From positions 1-33,905 of the IMG/VR virus record IMGVR_UViG_3300008259_000193: a DNA stretch of 33,905 nt. One strand, written 5' to 3'. Below the pieces are notes generated by a model. The model was not told where the DNA came from. It saw only the letters and a list, made by a program, of their open reading frames with translations, and ran no database searches. This DNA is from a virus. Of the stretch, positions 3,055-33,116 are shown one piece after another. The number at the start of each line of letters is the position of its first letter. Positions within the stretch are counted from its first letter, which is position 1. Position numbers and translations under genes: made by a program.

Positions 3055-4587
3055 ATGACAGACATAACAAGATTCAAGGCAATCTTCAATGGATTGGACA
3101 TTGCCTATGGGACATACAAGATAAAGGCAGAACGAGGAGATGGAAAGCAAGCAGGACAAGCTACGGTTGTGCGAAAGCCGCCAGTTGACGAGCTATGGGT
3201 CAAGCACCTTGAAGGTGTTGAACCGAGTCTTGGAATTATCCCAATCAGGGCGGATAACACCTGCATCTGGGGCTGTATTGACGTTGACCAGTATCCTCTG
3301 GACCTCAAAGGCCTAGTCGAGCGTGTTGCGCAGCTTAAGCTGCCGCTGGTCGTTTGCAGAAGTAAGTCAGGGGGTGCCCATGTATTCTTATTTACAAAAA
3401 CGCCTGTTCCGGCCCTAGATTTCCAAACGTATCTCAAAAACGCGGCTGCTCTGCTTGGTGAAGCGGGTCGAGAAATCTTTCCAAAACAAGCAGAGATCCT
3501 TGTTGATCGAGGGGACACCGGCAACTTCCTCAACCTTCCGTACTTCGGCGGCGAGAACGGTCTTCGTTACGCAGTCAACCCAGACGGGACTGCGGCGACT
3601 ATGGAAGAGTTTTATGCGCTCTACGATGCGGCGGTCCAAGACGTACCACTCAATTTCCCAGAGCCGCCTAAGCAGGTTGAGAGTCCCATCAAAGATGGCC
3701 CGCCATGCCTGCAGGCATTATGCGCCCAAGGCTTCCCGGAGGGCACCCGCAATAATGGACTATTCAACATTGGCATCTATCTTAAGAAGGTCCACGCAGC
3801 GGGCTGGGAAGACAAGATGGTTGAATACAACTACAAGTATGTGGCTCCCCCTTTGCCCAACAACGAAGTCCAACTATTGGTCAAGCAGGTTGGCAAGAAG
3901 GAGTATCACTACAAATGCAAGGACGCACCGCTCAACTCGTTTTGCAACTCCGGCCTTTGCCGCACTCGCAAATTCGGTATCGGAGCCGCTGCCCCTGATG
4001 CACCTCAGATAGCCAGCCTATCGAAGTACGCCAGTGAGCCGCCGCTGTGGTTCCTCGATGTCAACGGTCGCCGCATCGAGTTGGATACCGACAGCCTGTA
4101 CATGCAGGCCGCCTTCCAGAAGGCCTGCCTTGAGCGCTTGAACATCGTGCCGCCCACCCTGCGCAAGCAGGATTGGGAGAACCTGCTCAACGCCCTGCTC
4201 AAAGAGATGGTGGAGACCGAGCAGATCACCGAGGCCAGCGAGGACACCAGTGTCACCGGGCGCTTCATGGACCTGTTGGAAGAGTTCACGGCCCACATGC
4301 AGCAGGCCCTTGTGCGTGAGGAAATCATCATGGGCAGGCCCTGGACGGATGAGGATGAGGCCCGCACCTACTTCCGCATGAAGGACCTTGAGGCGCACCT
4401 CAAGCGCAACAACTTCGTGGGCCTGTCGGCGCCCAAGATGGCACAGCGCCTGCGCGACATGGGCGGCGAGCCCATCAGTTTGTTCCTGAAGAACCGCACC
4501 GTGCGCTGCTGGCGCATCCCCCGCTTCGAGCGGCAAGACGCACCGTTTGAGACCCAGACAGTGCGAGAGCAAGGGAGTCCGTTTTGA
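3055..4587 (+). CDS. archaeo-eukaryotic-type primase (PrimPol/TOTE-like)
   Basis: A 510-residue primase that would make primers for phage DNA replication. The AEP catalytic motifs are visible: the metal-binding DxD pair in CIDVDQY (D76 and D78), the SGGAHVFLF segment with H109, and a FPKQ...GNFLNLPYF stretch at about residues 140-165 that resembles TOTE-type primase domains. A zinc-binding-like knot follows near residues 285-303 (YKCKD...SFCNSGLCRTRKFG). The remaining C-terminal third is helical and unassigned. The ATG at 3055 has only a weak ribosome binding site (AGAGAT), fitting a regulated leader. The last bases overlap the TTG start of the UvrD-type helicase. Confidence 0.85.
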   Translation: MTDITRFKAIFNGLDIAYGTYKIKAERGDGKQAGQATVVRKPPVDELWVKHLEGVEPSLGIIPIRADNTCIWGCIDVDQYPLDLKGLVERVAQLKLPLVVCRSKSGGAHVFLFTKTPVPALDFQTYLKNAAALLGEAGREIFPKQAEILVDRGDTGNFLNLPYFGGENGLRYAVNPDGTAATMEEFYALYDAAVQDVPLNFPEPPKQVESPIKDGPPCLQALCAQGFPEGTRNNGLFNIGIYLKKVHAAGWEDKMVEYNYKYVAPPLPNNEVQLLVKQVGKKEYHYKCKDAPLNSFCNSGLCRTRKFGIGAAAPDAPQIASLSKYASEPPLWFLDVNGRRIELDTDSLYMQAAFQKACLERLNIVPPTLRKQDWENLLNALLKEMVETEQITEASEDTSVTGRFMDLLEEFTAHMQQALVREEIIMGRPWTDEDEARTYFRMKDLEAHLKRNNFVGLSAPKMAQRLRDMGGEPISLFLKNRTVRCWRIPRFERQDAPFETQTVREQGSPF

Positions 4588-18955: not shown

Positions 18956-19429
18956 ATGACTACCAAAACACCCTCGCCGAAAGGAAATGGAAAGTTCCTT
19001 GGGCGGCCGACGAAGTACGATCCCAAGTATTGCGACATTGTCATCGAGCTTGGCAAGAAGGGCTACAGCAGAGCGCAGATGTTCGCAGCAACGGGCGTGC
19101 CTTACGCTACGTTTAAAGCCTGGGAGCATGGTCAGCCGGATTTTCAAGCCGCCATGGATGAAGCGAAGGCTCATGCACTGGCATTTTGGGAAGATATGGC
19201 GTGCAATCACATGGTCGAAGCACCAGGTGGAGTGAAGCTCAACACCGGACTTTGGTCACGGTCCATGGCTGCGCGGTTTCCCCGTGATTACCGCGAGAAC
19301 GCCAAGGTTGAGGTTGTGGGCAAAGACGACGGGCCGATTGAAATTGATCACATTCATGACTTCTCGAAGACTTTGCTCGATGATTTGCTTGGCATAAGGC
19401 AAAAGGATGCTAAGTCAAAAGGCGGCTGA
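18956..19429 (+). CDS. terS: terminase small subunit
   Basis: The DNA-recognition subunit of the packaging motor, 157 residues from the ATG at 18956 (MTTKTPSPKGNGKFLGRPTK). After the GRPTKYDPKYCD start a helix-turn-helix is visible (SRAQMFAATGVPYATFKAW). A charged region follows (NAKVEVVGKDDGPIEIDHI), with an oligomerisation-like C-terminus. It overlaps the large subunit gene by 23 bases. Starts at GTG 18899 or ATG 18917 are possible. None has a good ribosome binding site, and TACAAT at 18942-18947 sits unusually close to the chosen ATG. Confidence 0.8.
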   Translation: MTTKTPSPKGNGKFLGRPTKYDPKYCDIVIELGKKGYSRAQMFAATGVPYATFKAWEHGQPDFQAAMDEAKAHALAFWEDMACNHMVEAPGGVKLNTGLWSRSMAARFPRDYRENAKVEVVGKDDGPIEIDHIHDFSKTLLDDLLGIRQKDAKSKGG

Positions 19430-20831
19430 GCAGCTTGCGGAGCGAATCCGCAACGGGCCGGACCTAAACAAAATGGCGCCTGAATGGCAGGCTGCACATC
19501 AAGCGCGGCAGAAATGGTTGCTTATTGCCAATGACCATCAAATCCCTCCTGGTGGCAACTGGTGGTCGATCTGGTTGTTGTTAGCAGGCCGCGGGGCTGG
19601 TAAGACGCGATGCGCCGCGGAATGGACCTGGTACGAAGCTTGGTCTAACCCAAACACTCGGTGGCTCGTATCAGCACCTACAAGCTCGGATGTTCGTGAC
19701 GTGTGCTTTGAGGGCGACTCAGGTCTCCTTCGCGTCATTCCTGAGATCCTGATTGCTGACTACATCAAGTCGTTGCATGAGCTTAAGCTTGTCAATGGTT
19801 CTATCATCAAAGGCATCCCAGCTAGTGAGCCTAATCGCTTTCGCGGACCTCAGTTCCATGGCGGTTGGCTTGATGAGCTGGCGGCCTGGGAGTACTTGGA
19901 TGACTCATGGGATATGCTCAACTTTGGCATGCGATTAGGCCAGCGCCCTCGACTCATTTGTACGACAACGCCTAAGCCAAAGCCTCTCATCATTGATCTG
20001 GTGAACCGCGAAGGTGAGGATGTGGTGTACACCTCGGCTTCGACGTATGACAACATTCAGAACCTGGCCCCAACTTTCCAAAAGCAGATCCTGCAATATG
20101 AAGGCACCAAGCTAGGGCGCCAAGAAATTCACGCTGAGATCATCGATCCGGAAGAAGCCGGCATTGTCAAGCGTGATTGGTTTAAGCTTTGGCCGCACGA
20201 GAAGCCATTGCCCAGATTTGAGTACGTGATTCAAAGCTACGATTGCGCCACGTCTGACAAAACCAAGAACGATCCAACAGCCTGCTCGGTGTGGGGCGTC
20301 TTTAAGCCAAGTCCCGACAAGCCAATGAGCGTCATGCTCATCGATTGCTGGGAGGAGTACATGCAATATCCCGAGCTGCGACCTAAAGTCATGGATGAGT
20401 ATGGCGCGATCTACGGGGATGAGAACGAGTTTGGGCATGGAAAAAAGGTTGACCTGATCCTGATCGAGGATAAAAGCGCCGGTATCTCACTCATCCAAGA
20501 CTTGCAGCGTGCCGGCTTGCCCGTTCGTGGCTACAACCCGGGCAATGCCGACAAGATGACGCGACTCAACATCGTGGCACCCATCATTGAGCGTGGCCGT
20601 GTCTACATTCCCGAGTCCATAAAGAATCCCGGCATGGCGCGTGATTGGGCCGAGGTCCTGATCTCGCAGATCTGTTCTTTTCCCGAAGTTCGGCACGACG
20701 ACTTGGTGGATACGACCACGCAGGCACTACGAGTGATTCGTGATATGGGCCTGATCAACATCGACCCGGTCATTGTCGTTGATGAGTATGACGAAGATCG
20801 GCAGAAAAGAGTTAACCCCTACGCGGTTTGA
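19407..20831 (+). CDS. terL: terminase large subunit
   Basis: The ATPase and nuclease of the DNA-packaging motor, 474 residues. Walker A is GRGAGKTR (residues 61-68), Walker B is GGWLDELAAWE with D156 and E157, and the CTTTPKPKPL coupling motif is at about 185-194. The RNase H-like nuclease shows SYDCATSDK (D279), LIEDKSAG (E354, D355) and RHDDLVDTTTQAL (D431, D435). The length and motif order fit a complete protein. The ATG at 19407 follows GCAAAAGG inside the small subunit gene. Confidence 0.96.
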   Translation: MLSQKAAEQLAERIRNGPDLNKMAPEWQAAHQARQKWLLIANDHQIPPGGNWWSIWLLLAGRGAGKTRCAAEWTWYEAWSNPNTRWLVSAPTSSDVRDVCFEGDSGLLRVIPEILIADYIKSLHELKLVNGSIIKGIPASEPNRFRGPQFHGGWLDELAAWEYLDDSWDMLNFGMRLGQRPRLICTTTPKPKPLIIDLVNREGEDVVYTSASTYDNIQNLAPTFQKQILQYEGTKLGRQEIHAEIIDPEEAGIVKRDWFKLWPHEKPLPRFEYVIQSYDCATSDKTKNDPTACSVWGVFKPSPDKPMSVMLIDCWEEYMQYPELRPKVMDEYGAIYGDENEFGHGKKVDLILIEDKSAGISLIQDLQRAGLPVRGYNPGNADKMTRLNIVAPIIERGRVYIPESIKNPGMARDWAEVLISQICSFPEVRHDDLVDTTTQALRVIRDMGLINIDPVIVVDEYDEDRQKRVNPYAV

Positions 20832-20883: not shown

Positions 20884-23800
20884 ATGCCTCCTGAGAATTT
20901 AGTTGATTACACCGCAAGCCCTGAAGAGCCAAGTCTCGATGCGATGCGATACGCGCTAACCCAGCGCAATGCCACACCCAATCAGCAGCAACAACGCCCA
21001 CTGGATAGCGTTACCGACACGTTCAAACGCCTTGCGACGGAGTTTAACCCGTTGATGATAGGTCGCACGCTGCAGGACGCGCCTAAGATTTTGTACAACG
21101 CAGCCGTTGCGCCTGTTGCCAGTACTTGGGCCGGTGCGTTAAAGAACATACAAGCTGCAGGGGCTGCCAAGGCGTATGGCGCATTGGGCATGCCGCAAGA
21201 AGCCGCAGAAGCCAAGAGTCGCATACAGCCCGTAACGCCGCAAAGTTTGCAGGCGCCATTGCGTTCGGCGACGGGTCAACAAACACAGGAAGCGTTAGGC
21301 GAGGCGTTTAACGCATTGCATCTCCCCCCGATGGGGCCAGGCTCAGGTATGCCAGGCACTGCCCCACTGAGTCCGCGGCCTTTCCTTACACCTAACGATG
21401 TAAGGGTCATGGGTGCAAAGGCTACGCACGCTGTGCGCGAGGCCGGGCAAATCCCGACGGACATCGCCAATGTGAGAGGCGCAGGCATTCAACGCCTTAG
21501 CCCGTTGACGGGCCAGCCTTCTGTAGGTAGTCGAATTGGCTCGGCAATTGAAGGCACGGCGCAAACTGCAGGGCGCGTAGGCGATGTGGCTCGTGATGTA
21601 GGGCAATCAACGGCGGATTACATGCAAATGCGGCGTGACATGGGCTTGAGCCCAGTGCCAGGCGTGCCGCCTGAGTTCTTTCCCGACTTGAATCTGTATG
21701 CCATGCGGCCTAAAGACTCGACGCTTGTCACGCCATCGGTCCCGCCTACAAAAGATGTGACCGCGTTGGATATAGGCACCGCGCCACAGACCGCAATTCA
21801 TGACATAGGCGCGCATAGGCCTGAGTTGCGCCCGTCCGATGCATTGGCGTATTTGGCAGGCATGGACTTGGACGTTCCACGCACTGACGAGCAAGGCTTT
21901 GCGCCTATTACATCCACGCGCGCAGATGCATTTCGCGCTTTTGTAGAGGCCAAAGCACAAGAGCTATATCCGGACGCGCCTAATGCTCGCGAGGCCGTAC
22001 TTGCGATGGATGACCGCTTTTCGCGGCAAGCGGATAGGGACGAATCGCGTATAAAGTTGTACGACCAGTTTCGTGAATCGCCGGAAGGCAAAGCCGTTGG
22101 CATGGATGATTTGCCATCGTCAAAGGAGTTGCAAGAGCGCCACGCTGCGGCGTCGCAATGGCTTAACTCTACGCTTTTAAACTACGTTAAACGCAAGTTT
22201 GGCGCTGAAGGTGATCCTTTGGTGCAGCAGGCATCACAAGGTATCACCATGCTACCGGCCGAGGACGTGCGTCGCATGGCAGAAAACGTTAACGAAGATG
22301 TCTTAAAGCGGCGCAGAGCTCAGACAGGCATGCCCGTTGCAGGCACCCTTGCACCTGCCATTCGAGATAAGTCAGTTGAGCTGGCTGATGCCACTGCAGC
22401 GGTGGAGCAGCTGGAACAGCGCCGTGAAGAGTATCGTAACGTTGCAATGCAGCAAGGTCTGCCCGATCCGGCGCAATTGCCTGAGTACGCGGCAACAACA
22501 AACCCGTTGAACGCAGCAGTTAACAAGCGCGATAAGTTGCAAGAAGAGCTAAATAACCTGCAGCTTGGTCGTGACTATGAAAAGATATCTGACATCGCCG
22601 TAGCGGTTGACACGCAACCTAGTTTACTAGGCAAAATTGAGTACCCGCAGCAACAGTTTTACCCGTCGGTTACGCGTGCGCGACCCGATGAGACGCTATT
22701 TCACATTTCTAAAGCAGGGCCACTTCAAAATACAGGCTTTAATGAATTGGCGGCGCAGTTTTATGACGACGTAATTCGTGGCAATATTCCCGTTGACAAG
22801 CTAAAAGGCTTGACCGTTGAGAAATATGTGCGCAACAAAGTTGAGGGCCGCGTTGCTGAAGAAAAACGCCAAGCACAAGCAACGGCGGAGTTGAAAAACA
22901 GCATTGAGTCGCGCATGCAACAGGACATGCAGCGGTACGTCAAGCCTGAGAATTACTTTGGCAACGTTGGCGTGTTGGAGCTTAGCACAAGTACGGGCTT
23001 TACGCCTGAGCAAATTCGTCAATTAATTAGCGACGACACGTTGGTGTTGGATCACTGCGTTGCCGAGGGTCCTACGCCTGGCAGCAAGGCAAAAAATCTT
23101 TGGAATGGCAAAGAGCGCAGGTATATGCCATTGGTTGACCCAATAACGGGCCAATTGTCACCGGGCGCACCTCGTCAGTACACTCGGTATATGCGCGAAG
23201 CTGGCGACCCAGACCCAAGTCGCGCAAGCATGCTGGCCAGTGTCCGCGATAAAAACACCGGTTTGCCTGTCGCAACCATTGAGTTTCAGCACGCCTCAAA
23301 TGGCAAGTATCGTATCGGCTACGCGTCAGGCTATCAAAACGGCAATGTCAAAAATGAGTACCATGAGGCTATCAAAGAGTACTTGAATTCTCGTGCCGAT
23401 ATGATTGAGGGCAGCGGTGATAATCTTTCACATGTAGGTTTGCTTGACTTGCATAGCACAGAGGCGACTGGTGAACTACAACGCATATTAGGCGTGCCGC
23501 GGCGCGATGCTGGCGCATTGCTAGATGCTGAGCTCGCAAACGGCACGTTGCCGCGGTTTGGTACAAGAGATGACCTGCGGCAAATTTTTACAGTTCCACA
23601 AACTGCGCCTGTAGTTCAGCAGCCTGCAACGACGCAACCTGCGCAGCAGAGCATGACTGCCACCGACCTGTACGAGTACTTACAACGTATAGGACGAACA
23701 ATCGGGGTTGACGAAAGCGCTGCAATAGCGCATGCACTACGCACAGTGCAGCGATCCTTTGATGGCGTGCCATCGTATAATGATCTATTGCGTGAGCAGC

Positions 23801-25644
23801 CTACCGCGTTTGCAGAGCGCGTTGCAGACCTCGCTTCAGAACAAGGCAACGCAATTGTTGAGCAAGCATTGCTTGATCTTGCTGACCGCATTGCGCCACC
23901 TGTGCCGCCCGCGCAGCCCTTAAACCCGCCAGAGGCGTGGCCTCTTGCGCAGCCCGAAGCACAACAACCTGAAGCGCAAGGCCGCGGCGCAGGGGCGCCT
24001 TTGGTGCCTAGCACACGGCTGGCAATTGATGACGCCTTTGAGCTTGCTGCGCGTGGCTTACAAGGTAATGATAATGCCACACGTAGGTTTGCTGCTATTG
24101 AGAGTGACTTCCGTGACACATATTTGCAGCCTAACACAACAATGGGTGATTTGCGTGTGTTGCGTACTCGCATAGAAAATGCAATTGACCATTATGATAC
24201 GGTTGCGCCATGGCCGGAAATTGCTGACGCATTGCGCAATGATTTGCTGCCTGCAATAAACGCTATAATTGAGCCGCAGCAGCAGCAACCTGCAGCTCAG
24301 CAGCGTCCCGCACTTGGCGTGTTTGAAGAATTTGCCATAGCTCGGGATTTGCTTGAAGACGCGCGTCTTGATAATCAAACGTTTAACATTGGCGATTTAA
24401 GCACTACACTGTTTGCGCTTGAGAATGGCAATTTTGATGACCCGCGATTTAGGGCACTAGGTCCAAACAGCGCGGCTGCACAACGTGAAGTTGCAAATGC
24501 ACTTCGTCAAACAATGCAAGACGCAGGTATTCCACTGCCTTTTGCGCAGCAGCCCGCAGCAGCTCCGCAGCAACCTACGCCTCAAGCGCAAGCTCGCATC
24601 GACAACATTCGTGCGGCTGATTTAGCCGACATTGTCAACTTTATCGACCCTAATAGATGGCCTTTGCTTGACGCACGCGTTGATCAAGCAGCACAAGGCG
24701 TATATCCAGCAGATGCAGCCACGATAGCAGAGGCCATTCGCAATGGGCAAATGACTGACATTACAAACGGGCTTGATGTCGTTGAGCGTGAGCTTGTTGC
24801 GCGAAACACGCAGCAACTTATTGAAGTCAATGCGCGCAGACAAGGTGCTGCCGCTGAGCAGCCTGTAGATCAGTTTGATCGCGTGCCATTTGATGATGCA
24901 ATAGTCAATTTTCATAACGAGTTAATAGAGCTGGCAAGTGAAGAAAGCAATTGGGGTTTAGCCATTGCTGAGGTTGACCGCATACTGGATGACCTACAGC
25001 ATGGCGCGGATTCAATTTATGGCTTATGGGAAGGCGATGAACCGCTTACCAATCGCGAGCGTGCGTACTTGACAGAAAAGCTTCGTGCGCTTCGTCAAGA
25101 GTACGAAATATACGCGGCGGACGCGGCAAGGGAGGAAGGTTTAGGCGATTGGGAGCCTGATCCTAACCATCCTGCTAATCGTCCTGTTAATCAGGCAATG
25201 CCGCGGGAACGACCCGCTACTGTACCATTTGCGCCTATTTCTCGTAATGCTGCAAATATGTCGTATGAGCAATTGCAAGAGGCATTAACCCCTGCGCAGA
25301 TTAGCGCGGTGGACGCAATCTATGACGATTTAGTTCGTGCTAACACCACGGCGGATGACTTAGATGTCGTTGCGCAATTGGTGTTTAACTACCCAATGAG
25401 TCTTTGGGAAGGCTTGTCAATTATTCCGCGAGCATTGCTTTACAAAGAGCTTACGATCGCGGCAGACAGTCTTAGAGAGCGTGAGGGCAGGCAGCAGCCA
25501 CCACAAGGCTATAAGTCAGGCGGCATTGTACGCAAGTCAGCGCCATCTCATAGTTTTGCACTGAAGTACGCAAACGGTGGTACAGTACCACAAACTCAAA
25601 GCTTGGACGCTATGAAATACGAACTTATGATGCGGAGTAAATGA
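20884..25644 (+). CDS. giant virion-operon protein with PcfJ-like domain
   Basis: A 1586-residue protein between terminase and portal; the ATG at 20884 follows AAGAGGG. The N-terminal 300 residues are alanine- and proline-rich. A segment near residues 635-850 has KGLTVEKYVRNKV, then VLDHCVAEG (H724, C725), then SVRDKNTGLPVATIEF (about 785) and YQNGN (817). It resembles the PcfJ-like domain of large polyvalent proteins of phages and conjugative elements. After about residue 930 come helical segments joined by Q/P-rich linkers. The ends share SLDAMRY (residue 17) and SLDAMKY (residue 1573). The tail has YKSGGIV and KYANGGTV. It may be packaged and injected; this is inferred. Confidence 0.7.
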   Translation: MPPENLVDYTASPEEPSLDAMRYALTQRNATPNQQQQRPLDSVTDTFKRLATEFNPLMIGRTLQDAPKILYNAAVAPVASTWAGALKNIQAAGAAKAYGALGMPQEAAEAKSRIQPVTPQSLQAPLRSATGQQTQEALGEAFNALHLPPMGPGSGMPGTAPLSPRPFLTPNDVRVMGAKATHAVREAGQIPTDIANVRGAGIQRLSPLTGQPSVGSRIGSAIEGTAQTAGRVGDVARDVGQSTADYMQMRRDMGLSPVPGVPPEFFPDLNLYAMRPKDSTLVTPSVPPTKDVTALDIGTAPQTAIHDIGAHRPELRPSDALAYLAGMDLDVPRTDEQGFAPITSTRADAFRAFVEAKAQELYPDAPNAREAVLAMDDRFSRQADRDESRIKLYDQFRESPEGKAVGMDDLPSSKELQERHAAASQWLNSTLLNYVKRKFGAEGDPLVQQASQGITMLPAEDVRRMAENVNEDVLKRRRAQTGMPVAGTLAPAIRDKSVELADATAAVEQLEQRREEYRNVAMQQGLPDPAQLPEYAATTNPLNAAVNKRDKLQEELNNLQLGRDYEKISDIAVAVDTQPSLLGKIEYPQQQFYPSVTRARPDETLFHISKAGPLQNTGFNELAAQFYDDVIRGNIPVDKLKGLTVEKYVRNKVEGRVAEEKRQAQATAELKNSIESRMQQDMQRYVKPENYFGNVGVLELSTSTGFTPEQIRQLISDDTLVLDHCVAEGPTPGSKAKNLWNGKERRYMPLVDPITGQLSPGAPRQYTRYMREAGDPDPSRASMLASVRDKNTGLPVATIEFQHASNGKYRIGYASGYQNGNVKNEYHEAIKEYLNSRADMIEGSGDNLSHVGLLDLHSTEATGELQRILGVPRRDAGALLDAELANGTLPRFGTRDDLRQIFTVPQTAPVVQQPATTQPAQQSMTATDLYEYLQRIGRTIGVDESAAIAHALRTVQRSFDGVPSYNDLLREQPTAFAERVADLASEQGNAIVEQALLDLADRIAPPVPPAQPLNPPEAWPLAQPEAQQPEAQGRGAGAPLVPSTRLAIDDAFELAARGLQGNDNATRRFAAIESDFRDTYLQPNTTMGDLRVLRTRIENAIDHYDTVAPWPEIADALRNDLLPAINAIIEPQQQQPAAQQRPALGVFEEFAIARDLLEDARLDNQTFNIGDLSTTLFALENGNFDDPRFRALGPNSAAAQREVANALRQTMQDAGIPLPFAQQPAAAPQQPTPQAQARIDNIRAADLADIVNFIDPNRWPLLDARVDQAAQGVYPADAATIAEAIRNGQMTDITNGLDVVERELVARNTQQLIEVNARRQGAAAEQPVDQFDRVPFDDAIVNFHNELIELASEESNWGLAIAEVDRILDDLQHGADSIYGLWEGDEPLTNRERAYLTEKLRALRQEYEIYAADAAREEGLGDWEPDPNHPANRPVNQAMPRERPATVPFAPISRNAANMSYEQLQEALTPAQISAVDAIYDDLVRANTTADDLDVVAQLVFNYPMSLWEGLSIIPRALLYKELTIAADSLREREGRQQPPQGYKSGGIVRKSAPSHSFALKYANGGTVPQTQSLDAMKYELMMRSK

Positions 25645-28190
25645 TGGCAACACAGATGCCGATACCTCCTGACTTTGGGCGCTTTGTTGGCCCCGTAGCA
25701 GAGCAAGAAGATGATGACGGGCAAAAGCAATCGGTCTTTGAGATCTTTAACGCGGAAGAGCCCGAGCCGGATGTTGAAGAGCTGCCTGACGGCTCGGCCA
25801 TTGTCCGCTTGGATGATGATAAGCTGCAAGGCCCAGACGTAGATCCGGACTTTTATGAGAACTTGGCCGAGCGGTTGCCGGCATCGGATCTTAAGAAATT
25901 AGCCATTAAGTACCTGGACCTGATTGAAAAGGATAAGGAGGCGCGCGAGGAGCGTGATAAGCAGTATGAAGAAGGCCTACGTAGAACGGGATTGGGAAAT
26001 GACGCCCCTGGTGGAGCGCAGTTTACCGGAGCCAGTAAAGTCGTCCATCCCGTCATGGCAGAAGCCTGCGTTGATTTCTCCGCCCGCGCCATTAAGGAGC
26101 TCTTTCCTCCTGACGGACCAGTCAAAACCAAGATCATTGGCGAGACTACTGATGAGAAAATAAAGCGCGCCGAGCGTAAGCGCGACTTTATGAATTGGCA
26201 GCTCACTGAGCAGATTGAGGAGTACCGCGATGAGTTGGAGCAGTTGCTTACGCAAAAGCCGCTTGGCGGATCACAGTATTTGAAGCTGTGGTATGACGAG
26301 TACAAGCGCAGGCCGTGCGCCGAGTTTGTGCCAATTGACAACATTTACTTACCGTTTGCTGCTGCAAACTTTTACACTGCGCAGCGCGTAACCGAAGTCA
26401 ACGACATCACGCAGGAGACGTTTGAGCTTCGTATTGCGCAAAAAATGTACACCGACATCGATTTGGTGCGCGCAACGCAAGAGCCTGAGCAAACCAAAGC
26501 GGAAAAGGCTAATGACAAAATCGAAGGCCGCTCTAGTCAGGAGATTAACGTCGACGGCGTCCGCAGGGTGTACCACATTTACACGTGGCTGGAAACGGAA
26601 GATGATTCTTTTACCAAAGGCGAGCGGGCACCGTACATCTTGATGATTGATGACTTTACGGGCGAGGTGGTAGGCCTGTATCGTAATTGGGAAAAAGGCG
26701 ACGACACGCTAACCAAGCTCGATTGGCTTGTTGAGTTTAAGTTTATTCCTTGGCGAGGAGCCTACGCCATTGGTTTGCCACACTTGATTGGCGGTTTAGC
26801 CGCTGCACTTACAGGCTCACTTCGTGCTTTGCTGGACGCCGCGCATATCAACAACGCACCGACCATGCTGAAGCTAAAAGGTGCAAAAATCTCCGGTCAA
26901 TCCACGCAGATTGAGCCTACACAAGTTGCGGAGATTGAAGGCGCCCCGGGTGTTGATGATGTGCGTAAGATTGCAATGCCTGTGCCTTTCAATCCACCAA
27001 GCGTTGTACTCTTTCAATTGCTAGGCTGGCTTACCGGCGCGGCAAAAGGCGTCGTTACCACCGCCGAGGAAAAGATTGCCGACGTCAACAGCAATGCGCC
27101 GGTAGGCACTACGCAGGCGTTGATTGAGCAAGGCGCCGCGGTGTTTAGCGCCATCCACGCGCGGTTGCATAATAGCCAAGCTCGCGTTCTTAAGATCCTT
27201 AACCGCTTGAACCGTTGGTACTTTGATGAGCAGTACAAAGGACATATGGTCGAGGACCTTGGTATAACCAAGGAAGACTTTGAGCGCGACACGGACATCA
27301 TCCCGGTCTCGGACCCGCACATCTTTGCTGAGACGCAGCGATACGCGCAGGTGCAAACCCTTGCCGCACGGGCACAGGCCAATCCCGACTTGTACAACCG
27401 CTTGGCCGTTGAGAAACGAATCCTTAAGCAGATTAAGCTGCCGGACATCAACGAAGTGTTGCCTGACCCGCAGAATGTCAAGGAGATGAACCCCGCATTG
27501 GAAAACGTAGCCATGACGCTCGGCAAGCCGGTAGGCGCCTTTCCCGCGCAAGATCATTTGGCCCATATTCAAGTTCACTTGGATTACATGCGCGATCCGG
27601 TGTATGGCGCAAATCCTATCATCGCGCCGGCATTTACGCCACAATGCCTGGAGCATTTGAAGCAACACCTTGTGTTGTGGTACCTTAATCATGTTGAGCA
27701 ATACGCCGCGTCCGCGCTGTCTCGGCCTTTCAACATTTTGAAAGAGCAAGTGCTGCCTGCAGAAGCCGATCAGCTGCTTGCAGCAGTTGCGCAACATGTC
27801 CACCAAGATACGAGCCAGACTTTTGGCGGCGTAACGCCGGTCATTGCGCAGGCACTGCAAATGCTGAAGCAAATGCAAGGCCAACCGCCGTTGGATCCGG
27901 CAACGCAGGCGTTTGTGCAAACCAGCATGGCTGAAACACAGCGCAGAGCAGCAAAAGATCAAGGCGAGTTGCAGTTGAATGTTGCCAAGATGCAGCAGAA
28001 CGACCAGCACTTTATGATTGATAAGCAAACCGAGCTGATCAAAAATACGGAAGACAACTTGGTGCAGGAAAGAATCAAGTCGGCAGAGCTTACGCGTGAT
28101 GCTGCCAGCTTGCAAACTGAGCAGTTTAAGACTGCGATCGACGCGCAAAACGCAATCCAATCTACTCTAGGAGTTCAAAATGGCCAATGA
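25641..28190 (+). CDS. portal protein
   Basis: An 849-residue head-tail connector through which DNA is packaged. The acidic N-terminus is followed by a portal-like core: QFTGASKVVHPVMAEACVDF near residue 130, then KPLGGSQYLKLWYDEYKRRP, IDNIYLPFAA, and a long central-helix region (HLIGGLAAALTGSLRALLDAA). The glutamine-rich C-terminal helices end at residue 849. The layout matches the large SU10/phiEco32-type portals I know. The start overlaps the giant gene's stop (AAATGATG); the ATG at 25644 has the better distance to GGAG. It precedes scaffold and capsid genes as expected. Confidence 0.88.
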   Translation: MMATQMPIPPDFGRFVGPVAEQEDDDGQKQSVFEIFNAEEPEPDVEELPDGSAIVRLDDDKLQGPDVDPDFYENLAERLPASDLKKLAIKYLDLIEKDKEAREERDKQYEEGLRRTGLGNDAPGGAQFTGASKVVHPVMAEACVDFSARAIKELFPPDGPVKTKIIGETTDEKIKRAERKRDFMNWQLTEQIEEYRDELEQLLTQKPLGGSQYLKLWYDEYKRRPCAEFVPIDNIYLPFAAANFYTAQRVTEVNDITQETFELRIAQKMYTDIDLVRATQEPEQTKAEKANDKIEGRSSQEINVDGVRRVYHIYTWLETEDDSFTKGERAPYILMIDDFTGEVVGLYRNWEKGDDTLTKLDWLVEFKFIPWRGAYAIGLPHLIGGLAAALTGSLRALLDAAHINNAPTMLKLKGAKISGQSTQIEPTQVAEIEGAPGVDDVRKIAMPVPFNPPSVVLFQLLGWLTGAAKGVVTTAEEKIADVNSNAPVGTTQALIEQGAAVFSAIHARLHNSQARVLKILNRLNRWYFDEQYKGHMVEDLGITKEDFERDTDIIPVSDPHIFAETQRYAQVQTLAARAQANPDLYNRLAVEKRILKQIKLPDINEVLPDPQNVKEMNPALENVAMTLGKPVGAFPAQDHLAHIQVHLDYMRDPVYGANPIIAPAFTPQCLEHLKQHLVLWYLNHVEQYAASALSRPFNILKEQVLPAEADQLLAAVAQHVHQDTSQTFGGVTPVIAQALQMLKQMQGQPPLDPATQAFVQTSMAETQRRAAKDQGELQLNVAKMQQNDQHFMIDKQTELIKNTEDNLVQERIKSAELTRDAASLQTEQFKTAIDAQNAIQSTLGVQNGQ

Positions 28191-28467
28191 AGGTATCAAT
28201 ATGCATAAGCGTTTGGCAATGGGCGCGTCTGAAGGGACGGCCAAAGCCAGTGGCAAAAGTGTGATTCAAAAGTACGCAGCAGGCGGGTCGGTAATGCCTG
28301 AGTCGCGAGTGGCAAACCTGCCTGCTCGTGGCTCCGCGCCGCCGCCTCTTCCTAAACCTGGCGGCAAAATTGCCACTATGAAAAAAGGTGGCGCTGCTAA
28401 AAAAGGCCCCGGCATTATGATTGCCGTGGCCGTCCCCGTGAAGAAATCTGCAGGTCGTGGCCGTTGA
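28180..28467 (+). CDS. small basic protein with VIQKYAAGGSV motif
   Basis: A 95-residue, strongly basic protein rich in G, A, K and P. The motif VIQKYAAGGSV (residues 28-38) recurs in variant form in gene 32679-33116 and at the C-terminus of the giant protein. A KKGGAAKKGPG stretch and a GRGR terminus make it suited to binding DNA or an acidic surface. The ATG overlaps the portal end by 11 bases and follows AGGAG. It is probably a minor virion component; no family is recognised. Confidence 0.7.
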   Translation: MANEGINMHKRLAMGASEGTAKASGKSVIQKYAAGGSVMPESRVANLPARGSAPPPLPKPGGKIATMKKGGAAKKGPGIMIAVAVPVKKSAGRGR

Positions 28468-28474
28468 GCAATCA

Positions 28475-28660
28475 ATGTCTATGCTTGGAGATTTCATCGG
28501 CCGCGTAAAGGTTGAGCAGGCCAAACTTGCGGAGAGCCTTACACAAGGCTTGGCCACAAATTTTGAGACCTACCAGCGTTTAGTCGGCCGGCACCAAGGC
28601 TTGCAAGAAGCCTTGTCCATTCTTAATCAACTACTTGAAGAGGAACGAGATGGCAATTGA
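28475..28660 (+). CDS. small helical protein, 61 residues
   Basis: The protein begins MSMLGDFIGRVKVEQAKLAE and is one or two amphipathic helices (TNFETYQRLVGRHQGLQEAL), ending EEERDGN. The start is uncertain: GTG at 28457 overlaps the preceding gene, while ATG at 28475 has only GAG nearby. It ends 11 bases inside the GroES-like gene. Its place between portal and scaffold genes suggests a small morphogenesis protein. No family is recognised. Confidence 0.65.
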   Translation: MSMLGDFIGRVKVEQAKLAESLTQGLATNFETYQRLVGRHQGLQEALSILNQLLEEERDGN

Positions 28661-29087
28661 ACTTATGCCGGAGGCTTCGAATGAAGCCGAGTTGCGGGAA
28701 GCATTTCCTGCAGTTGACCCCGGTGCAATCCCCGTAGGTGGTAGGATCTTGGTGCAATGGCGCGCCGTGCGCGACAAGATCACTAGCTCAGGCATTGTGC
28801 TGCCTGAGGAAACCAAAGAGACTGAAAAGTGGAATACGCAGGTTGCAAAAGTTGTTGCAATTGGCCCACTTGCCTTTAAGAAACGCGATTCCATGGAGCC
28901 GTGGCCCGAAGGCAGTTGGATTGCCGTCGGGGATTACGTGCGTATGCCTAAATGGGGCGGCGACCGCTGGGAAGTACCCTTTGAGGTTGACAATGCCAAA
29001 GGCAAAGCGCTTTTTAGCATCTTTAACGACCACGAGGTGATTGCAAAAGTCACCGGTGACCCGTTAAAAGTAAAAGCTTTCGTGTAA
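28650..29087 (+). CDS. GroES-like co-chaperonin
   Basis: A 145-residue protein with the Cpn10 pattern: VGGRILVQWRAVRDK, a mobile-loop-like segment ITSSGIVLPEE, KVVAIGPLAF, VGDYVRMPKWGGDRW and a final FNDHEVIAKV. It would cap the host GroEL chamber to help fold the capsid protein, as T4 gp31 does; this is the family role, not shown here. It is longer than the host protein (about 95 residues), with an acidic N-terminus and an extension in the middle. The ATG at 28650 follows GAGGAACGAG. It lies before the scaffold and capsid genes. Confidence 0.82.
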   Translation: MAIELMPEASNEAELREAFPAVDPGAIPVGGRILVQWRAVRDKITSSGIVLPEETKETEKWNTQVAKVVAIGPLAFKKRDSMEPWPEGSWIAVGDYVRMPKWGGDRWEVPFEVDNAKGKALFSIFNDHEVIAKVTGDPLKVKAFV

Positions 29088-32220: not shown

Positions 32221-32670
32221 ATGGCACAAACCTACTTTGGTTCTACTGTCCGAGCCGGTTCCGGTACTTTGACCGATACCGTTGACGGCGGTTTTATGGT
32301 GTTGATGCAGACGGCTACGGTAACTACGGTTTCCGCAGGCACTGCAGTTACCAGCACTGCAACTATTCCGGCAGATTCGCAGATCATCAATTTGATCATT
32401 GATTGCACCACGACTCCGGTTGTGGGTGGCGGTACCGCCACTGTAGTTAATGCAACGATTGGTACTGCTGCTGCTGGCACGCAGTATCTTTCTGCGACTG
32501 ATGTGATTACTGGCGGTCGTGCTGCTCTCACTTTCACTGCCGCTCAATTGAGCGCAATGGGAGATGTGAACAACAACACGACCGTTGCATTCACTGTCGA
32601 TCCAGACGGAACTATTTCCACCACTCAGGGTGTTTACCGCCTCACGGTGGTATACGCTCAGAAAGTCTGA
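32221..32670 (+). CDS. virion protein, low-complexity beta-rich
   Basis: A 149-residue protein very rich in T, A, V and G, starting MAQTYFGSTVRAGSGTLTD. It has repeated hydrophobic strands (GGFMVLMQTATVTTVSA, ADSQIINLIIDC) and ends YRLTVVYAQKV, typical of surface or fibre-like virion proteins. The ATG follows TAGGAGAACACAA, just past the capsid hairpin. Its exact position on the particle cannot be told. Confidence 0.7.
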   Translation: MAQTYFGSTVRAGSGTLTDTVDGGFMVLMQTATVTTVSAGTAVTSTATIPADSQIINLIIDCTTTPVVGGGTATVVNATIGTAAAGTQYLSATDVITGGRAALTFTAAQLSAMGDVNNNTTVAFTVDPDGTISTTQGVYRLTVVYAQKV

Positions 32671-32678
32671 GGTACATC

Positions 32679-33116
32679 ATGGGCCAATTCAAACCAATGC
32701 CTAAGATGAAAACTACGGAGCCCACCGTTGAGCTTAAGCTCAAAAAAGGCGGCCCTGTAAAGAAGGCAATGGGAGGCGCAATGCCTGCTGCTGCAATGCC
32801 TTCTGAACGAGGCGTGCCTCGTGCTGCACGACGTGGTATGGCGCCTGCCATGCCGCGTCGTGATATTGGCATGGGTGGTATGCCTATTATGCGTAAAAAG
32901 GGCGGTGAAGTTGAGTCTGCCAAGACTCATGCATCTGAGATGAAAGCCATTAAAGGGCTTAAATCTGAGATGTCATCGCATGAAGCAAAGCCTGCATCCA
33001 AAGCGCATAAAGGTCTGAAGACTGGCGGTGTTGTTGAAAAATATGCTACCGGCGGGGTGATTCAGAAATATAAGCACGGCGGAAAAATGCATAAAGCCTA
33101 CGGCGGCAAGTGCTAA
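32679..33116 (+). CDS. small basic protein with KYATGG-type repeats
   Basis: A 145-residue, very basic protein rich in K, G, M and A. The N-terminal half has KKGGPVKKAMGGAMPAA and RRGMAPAMPRRDIGMGG. The C-terminus (residues about 115-145) has consecutive motifs VVEKYATGG, VIQKYKHGG and HKAYGGKC. They match VIQKYAAGG in gene 28180-28467. It resembles a DNA-condensing or capsid-internal protein. The ATG follows GAGGTACATC, and a strong terminator lies just after the stop. Confidence 0.7.
   Translation: MGQFKPMPKMKTTEPTVELKLKKGGPVKKAMGGAMPAAAMPSERGVPRAARRGMAPAMPRRDIGMGGMPIMRKKGGEVESAKTHASEMKAIKGLKSEMSSHEAKPASKAHKGLKTGGVVEKYATGGVIQKYKHGGKMHKAYGGKC

What the first reader, a model, noticed from the sequence alone, without database searches (positions are those of the whole stretch)
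20884..25644. Giant 1586-residue polyvalent-like protein between terminase and portal
A gene of 4.7 kb normally does not separate the large terminase from the portal. A central segment reads KGLTVEKYVRNKV, VLDHCVAEG, SVRDKNTGLPVATIEF and YQNGN in that order, which fits the PcfJ-like domain of the polyvalent proteins described in phages and conjugative elements. The rest is helical modules with Q/P-rich linkers. Such proteins are thought to enter the cell with the DNA and counter host defences. If packaged, this would be an injected multi-domain effector.
Basis: partly seen in the sequence, partly recalled or inferred. Interest (0 to 1): 0.85.

Follow-up and report, generated by a model that had tools for sequence, protein, structure and literature searches.

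The report
Modular phage cargo protein, PcfJ-like core
A freshwater phage carries, between its DNA-packaging motor gene and its portal gene, a giant multi-part protein that is probably loaded into the virus particle and injected into the bacterium; related phages swap different parts into the same place while keeping the same end tags, which makes the proposed loading tags testable.

Summary
An intact 1586-residue ORF (20884-25644) lies between TerL and portal, its stop overlapping the portal start (ATGA), under purifying selection (dN/dS 0.24). The PcfJ reading also holds, but only by profile-profile and structure: Pfam, PHROGs and NCBIfam name nothing. Residues 395-925 match canonical PcfJ slot proteins of sister phages (hhalign E 3e-19; controls 0.2-0.95), the core alone matches phage plus bacterial PcfJ (7e-7), and the AlphaFold model's best named BFVD match is a PcfJ-like phage protein (5e-12). 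The TerL-portal gap is a swap slot in this freshwater lineage: 0.4-7.8 kb in 67 loci (near-duplicates included), holding proteins with PcfJ, ART-PolyVal, LPD23 or GP88, i.e. polyvalent proteins. A disordered ~265-residue leader (dN/dS 0.10) recurs on proteins with other bodies, and a terminal tag (GGxV...SLDxMKYEL) is found in 21 of 124 slot ORFs and in none of 2977 others. The PcfJ core models look like half a GNAT acyltransferase (canonical model: 50 of 50 top PDB alignments), without sequence support. Virion packaging, injection and the anti-defence role are inferred, not shown. New variant of a known kind.

The parts
20884..25644 (+). Giant slot protein, 1586 aa, between TerL and portal
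   Evidence: Open frame; dN/dS 0.24 against L005; homologues in L002-L007
20884..21708 (+). Residues 1-275: disordered N-terminal leader, also found on proteins with other bodies
   Evidence: pLDDT 30-50; dN/dS 0.10; leader HMM hits L035 (2e-49) and L034 (9e-30), which lack the PcfJ module, and sits internally (545-834) in L021
20929..20970 (+). N-terminal copy of the terminal tag, residues 16-29, PSLDAMRYALTQRN
   Evidence: P16, M21, Y23, L25 nearly invariant in 15 homologues; motif in the first 60 residues of 15 of 17 leader proteins checked
21709..22962 (+). Residues 276-693: helical region with coiled-coil hairpin 490-571; contains the WLxxxLxNYVK..G..DP segment shared with canonical PcfJ slot proteins
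   Evidence: pLDDT mostly about 90 from residue 280; hhalign of 395-495 against canonical E 6e-13; hmmsearch hits L068, L057, L050
22963..23598 (+). Residues 694-905: divergent PcfJ-like core (DHCVAEG, SVRDKNTGLPVATIEF, GYQN)
   Evidence: hhalign against phage and cellular PcfJ E 7e-7, reversed control 0.59; Foldseek BFVD PcfJ-like E 4.6e-12 for the whole model
23599..25509 (+). Residues 906-1542: variable region of 75-100 aa helical modules with Q/P linkers, gained, lost and duplicated among relatives; L005 carries an extra ~320 aa EEIQSD domain here
25510..25641 (+). Residues 1543-1586: C-terminal tag YKSGGIV...YANGGTVPQTQSLDAMKYELMMRSK
   Evidence: tag regex in the last 35 aa: 21 of 124 slot ORFs, 0 of 2977 others
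19407..20831 (+). Large terminase subunit (left border of the slot)
   Evidence: PF03237 3e-25, PF17289
25641..28190 (+). Portal protein (right border; start overlaps the slot gene's stop)
   Evidence: phrog_1216 8.7e-15

Best explanation
It is a phage polyvalent protein: a modular cargo protein encoded in a hypervariable slot between TerL and portal. Proposed working: it is translated late, coupled to the portal by the ATGA overlap (sequence shown, timing inferred). Its disordered leader and its tags at both ends dock it onto the portal or inner head during assembly (inferred). It leaves the head with the DNA through the portal (inferred). The divergent PcfJ-like core then acts early in the new host; its predicted fold resembles the first half of a GNAT acyltransferase, so my favoured activity is binding or acylating a host target, by analogy with the GNATs already known in polyvalent proteins (inferred, weak). 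The helical C-terminal region is a variable spacer or binding region in which other domains are gained and lost.
For: PcfJ-like module: hhalign E 2.6e-19 (controls 0.2-0.95), core alone 7e-7; BFVD matches to PcfJ-like phage proteins 4.6e-12 and 6e-6; secondary-structure elements of the window model and the canonical PcfJ model correspond in order. Canonical PcfJ in the same slot, between TerL and portal, in L050, L056, L057 and phage DSL-LC04. ART-PolyVal, LPD23 and GP88 domains in other slot proteins. Slot size 0.4-7.8 kb. Leader re-used on bodies without the PcfJ module and under the strongest constraint. Terminal tag confined to slot ORFs. GNAT-like: all 50 top VIA rows for canonical PcfJ residues about 192-385 (Z 5.8-8.1, mostly rmsd 3-4 A over 90-115 residues), and recurrent GNAT chains for the window model. 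PMC5512222 reports that phage polyvalent proteins lie near virion genes and include GNATs and ARTs. Yersinia phage YerA41 annotates a PcfJ-domain protein as 'structural protein'.
Against: No virion proteomics for this lineage. The window protein itself does not reach Pfam PF14284 at E up to 1. GNAT similarity has no sequence support (E 0.3-0.68; reversed controls 0.66-0.77), and the core appears to lack the second half of a GNAT. The C-terminal tag is absent from many slot proteins. The individual peptide evidence for the YerA41 protein was not seen.
Confidence: 0.66

Rival explanations
1. An ordinary structural ejection or internal core protein: it lines the head or extends the channel for DNA entry and has no effector activity; the PcfJ-like core is a structural remnant.
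For: Long helical hairpin and disordered leader; position next to portal; PcfJ protein of YerA41 annotated as structural.
Against: In Caulobacter phage RW and in L083 the gap is only 446 and 563 nt, and non-homologous bodies with ADP-ribosyltransferase (ART-PolyVal) or GP88 domains occupy the same slot; a conserved structural part would not be exchanged so freely.
Confidence: 0.17
2. A non-virion late protein made inside the infected cell (assembly factor, or an effector against superinfection or late defence) that is merely in the same operon as the portal.
For: No direct evidence of packaging; translational overlap with portal shows co-expression only.
Against: Shared leader and terminal tag restricted to the slot suggest a common destination; polyvalent families are predicted to be transferred with DNA (PMC5512222).
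Confidence: 0.13
3. Tail tape-measure or fibre protein misplaced in the head operon.
For: Length of about 1600 aa with long helices.
Against: Slot can hold almost nothing in relatives (RW, L083) while the portal is 48-62% identical, and other large ORFs (1680 aa, 792 aa) exist elsewhere in the 52 kb relative G001; the PcfJ-like match.
Confidence: 0.03

Closest known systems
PcfJ (Pfam PF14284) as in phage DSL-LC04 WJZ48068
   Same: Collinear homology over residues 395-925 and the core; same place between TerL and portal, followed by GroES and the capsid genes
   Different: Window version falls below Pfam detection, has a long insert between HCV and SVRD, has lost the Q of QxxGxxN, and carries a leader and helical region not found there
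Phage polyvalent proteins (Iyer et al. 2017, PMC5512222)
   Same: Very large, multi-domain, encoded among virion genes of a portal-terminase phage; slot siblings carry ART-PolyVal and LPD23
   Different: PcfJ is not named there; a common leader and terminal tag, and a fixed TerL-portal slot, were not found described in the passages read
GP88 slot protein of MW202545 (Manatee Spring)
   Same: Same slot, GGxV/SIxxMKHEM-type tags internally and at the C-terminus
   Different: Body unrelated by BLAST; carries GP88 instead of PcfJ
GNAT acyltransferases (PF00583 superfamily)
   Same: Predicted order b1-a1-a2-b2-b3-b4-a3, with the conserved G-x-x-N loop where GNATs have motif A
   Different: No sequence-profile similarity; second half of the fold appears to be missing

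Membership tests
PcfJ (PF14284) | Match to the Pfam model over its cut-off | tested here: not met
   No PcfJ hit for P0001 at E up to 1
PcfJ (PF14284) | Homology to proteins that do pass the cut-off | tested here: met
   hhalign 2.6e-19 for the module, 7.2e-7 for the core with cellular members, controls 0.2-0.95; L021 carries both versions
PcfJ (PF14284) | Same fold as a canonical PcfJ protein | tested here: met
   BFVD PcfJ-like E 4.6e-12 and 6.3e-6; secondary-structure elements correspond in order between the two models, by inspection
Phage polyvalent protein | Large multi-domain protein encoded among virion genes of a portal-terminase phage | tested here: met
Phage polyvalent protein | Shares locus and modules with proteins bearing named polyvalent domains | tested here: met
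   ART-PolyVal in 6 and LPD23 in 1 of 37 slot proteins scanned; leader and tag exchange
Phage polyvalent protein | Two or more recognisable effector domains in the same chain | tested here: inconclusive
   Only the PcfJ-like core is recognised in the window; the helical C-terminal modules are unassigned
Phage polyvalent protein | Packaged in the virion and injected | not testable with these tools
   Needs proteomics and an injection assay
GNAT acyltransferase | GNAT fold | tested here: inconclusive
   50 of 50 VIA rows GNAT for canonical PcfJ, Z 5.8-8.1; the window model's own VIA list was filled by its coiled coil
GNAT acyltransferase | Sequence-profile similarity to PF00583 members | tested here: not met
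   E 0.68 and 0.3, reversed controls 0.66 and 0.77

The most novel reading that the evidence does not exclude
A lineage of freshwater phages has a dedicated cargo slot between TerL and portal, whose otherwise different polyvalent effectors share a disordered leader and a short terminal tag that act as a general head-loading signal; the PcfJ family that recurs there is an unrecognised GNAT-derived half-domain.
Probability: 0.3. Interest if true: 0.82.

Novelty: new variant of a known kind. Interest (0 to 1): 0.62.

Why it matters
How phages load protein cargo into the head is known for only a few systems. A slot with exchangeable effector bodies and a shared leader and tag would give a loading signal testable by fusing it to a reporter, and a place to look for injected effectors in uncultivated phages. 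A GNAT-like reading of PcfJ would give a testable activity to a family for which no function was found in the papers held here.

Tried and rejected
Pfam, PHROGs, NCBIfam and PADLOC on the window protein: no named family. tblastn of the whole protein against 50,697 phage records: no match. The A2 alignment was too divergent for the search for related loci. VIA on the 925-residue model was filled by the coiled-coil hairpin 490-560 and is uninformative for the core. Profile search of PDB sequences gave only coiled coils, helix bundles and weak uracil-DNA glycosylase hits. GNAT by sequence profile: negative. The GGxV half-motif alone was rejected as a slot marker because it also occurs in other virion-region ORFs. 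Tape-measure and scaffold readings were rejected from slot variability. No held paper describes PcfJ function in phages.

Full report
Observation. The ORF 20884-25644 is real and intact, preceded by an AGAGGG site and ending in a TGA that overlaps the portal ATG. The neighbours are TerL and portal, then a GroES-like protein and the major capsid protein. Against the homologue in L005 the changes concentrate at third codon positions (274/212/547) and dN/dS is 0.24; by region it is 0.10 for residues 1-275, 0.12-0.21 for 276-910 and 0.34-0.35 for the rest.

The slot. Eighty portal-related IMG/VR loci were fetched. Among 67 loci where both genes were found (near-duplicates and the window's own copy included), the TerL-portal distance ranges from 446 to 7782 nt, 58 of them at 2 kb or more. 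Caulobacter phage RW has only a tRNA annotated there; MW202545 has a GP88 protein; phage DSL-LC04 from Dishui Lake water has a protein annotated PcfJ-like in exactly this place, followed by portal, GroES and capsid genes. Of 37 slot proteins scanned, six carry ART-PolyVal, three PcfJ, one LPD23, one GP88 and one DUF7178; the ART-PolyVal matches lie in six records over the cut-off. The slot is therefore a place for polyvalent proteins.

PcfJ-like core. The window protein matches no Pfam family at E up to 1. An alignment of 15 homologues of residues 395-925 against ten canonical PcfJ-type slot proteins gives hhalign probability 99.2 and E 2.6e-19; reversed and column-shuffled controls give 0.2-0.95. 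The flank 395-495 alone gives 6e-13 and the core against phage members only 6e-4. Against a core alignment that adds bacterial PcfJ proteins (found in 8 of 299 genomes of one phylum) the window core gives 7.2e-7 against 0.59 reversed. L021 carries a canonical module and a window-type module in one chain.

Structure. AlphaFold2 with the 15-sequence alignment leaves 1-275 disordered and models about 280-905 at pLDDT mostly near 90. Its best BFVD match is an unnamed phage protein (8e-50); the next is a PcfJ-like protein (4.6e-12), and a second PcfJ-like one follows at 6e-6. A separate model of the canonical module of L050 (mean pLDDT 75) has its elements in the same order. In PDB the window model recovers several GNAT chains at non-significant E, and all 50 VIA rows for the canonical model are GNAT-fold enzymes over residues about 192-385, Z 5.8-8.1. 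The notes of that tool warn that Z under 8 can be a common arrangement, and sequence profiles show nothing, so the GNAT reading is a hypothesis. In it, the conserved G-x-x-N loop (816-819) lies where GNATs have motif A, and the second half of the GNAT fold appears to be missing.

Leader and tag. An HMM of residues 1-275, trained without L034 and L035, finds both (9e-30, 2e-49), although neither has the PcfJ module; both have a STIHELxHAIQ zincin-like motif instead. In L021 the leader lies internally, at the joint of two modules. The tag regex occurs in the last 35 residues of 21 of 124 slot ORFs and 0 of 2977 other ORFs of at least 100 aa in the loci then held. The regex was written after seeing slot proteins, and most of the 21 are relatives of the window, so the number of independent bodies is small: MW202545 (GP88), L047 and the L037/L039/L045/L049 group are the clearest other cases, and some of these chain-link to the window clade by short partial matches. 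A tag copy also sits near the N-terminus in 15 of 17 leader proteins checked.

C-terminal region. Helical modules of residues 906-1545 are gained, lost and duplicated among relatives; L005 and L033 add an EEIQSD domain that also occurs in L028.

Mechanism. Shown: gene, slot, PcfJ-like homology, exchange of bodies, shared leader and tag, overlap with portal. Inferred: late co-translation, loading into the head by leader and tag, ejection with DNA, action of the core on a host target. The literature supports the class but not this member: phage polyvalent proteins lie near virion genes and are predicted to be packaged (PMC5512222). YerA41 annotates its PcfJ protein as structural, and 63 particle-associated proteins were found by mass spectrometry in that phage (PMC7354516), but whether this protein is one of the 63 was not seen.

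Host. Portal relatives at 61% identity lie in MAGs labelled Gammaproteobacteria and Burkholderiales; this is a hint only, since phage contigs can be binned wrongly.

Noticed in passing
window 28180-28467 and 32502-33113: Small ORF after portal (KYAAGGSVMPE) and ORF after the capsid gene (LKLKKGGPV, RKKGGEVES) carry the GGxV half of the tag; many relatives do too, so a shared virion-region motif may exist.
   Followed up: partly
L034 and L035, slot proteins: Same leader and tags as the window but a zincin-like STIHELxHAIQ motif and, in L035, a DELQSDW motif instead of the PcfJ module.
   Followed up: partly
L014:2818-3855, L016:1337-2551, L025:3971-5329, L074, L078, L079, L087, L088: A second, smaller slot protein family (about 350-540 aa), unrelated by BLAST to the giant proteins; in L074, L078, L079, L087 and L088 it is the only large slot ORF.
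   Followed up: no
window 3055-4587: Primase-like protein with a match to the AEP domain of TOTE conflict systems (PF22548, 7e-12).
   Followed up: no
window 28635-29087: Phage-encoded GroES-like co-chaperonin between portal and capsid genes, conserved in position in MW202545, RW and DSL-LC04.
   Followed up: no
canonical PcfJ-type slot proteins L052, L054, L062, L068 and the first module of L021: The HCVGGY motif is replaced by MGHSVxGYE...GGW while the rest of the PcfJ module is kept, so the cysteine is not universal.
   Followed up: no
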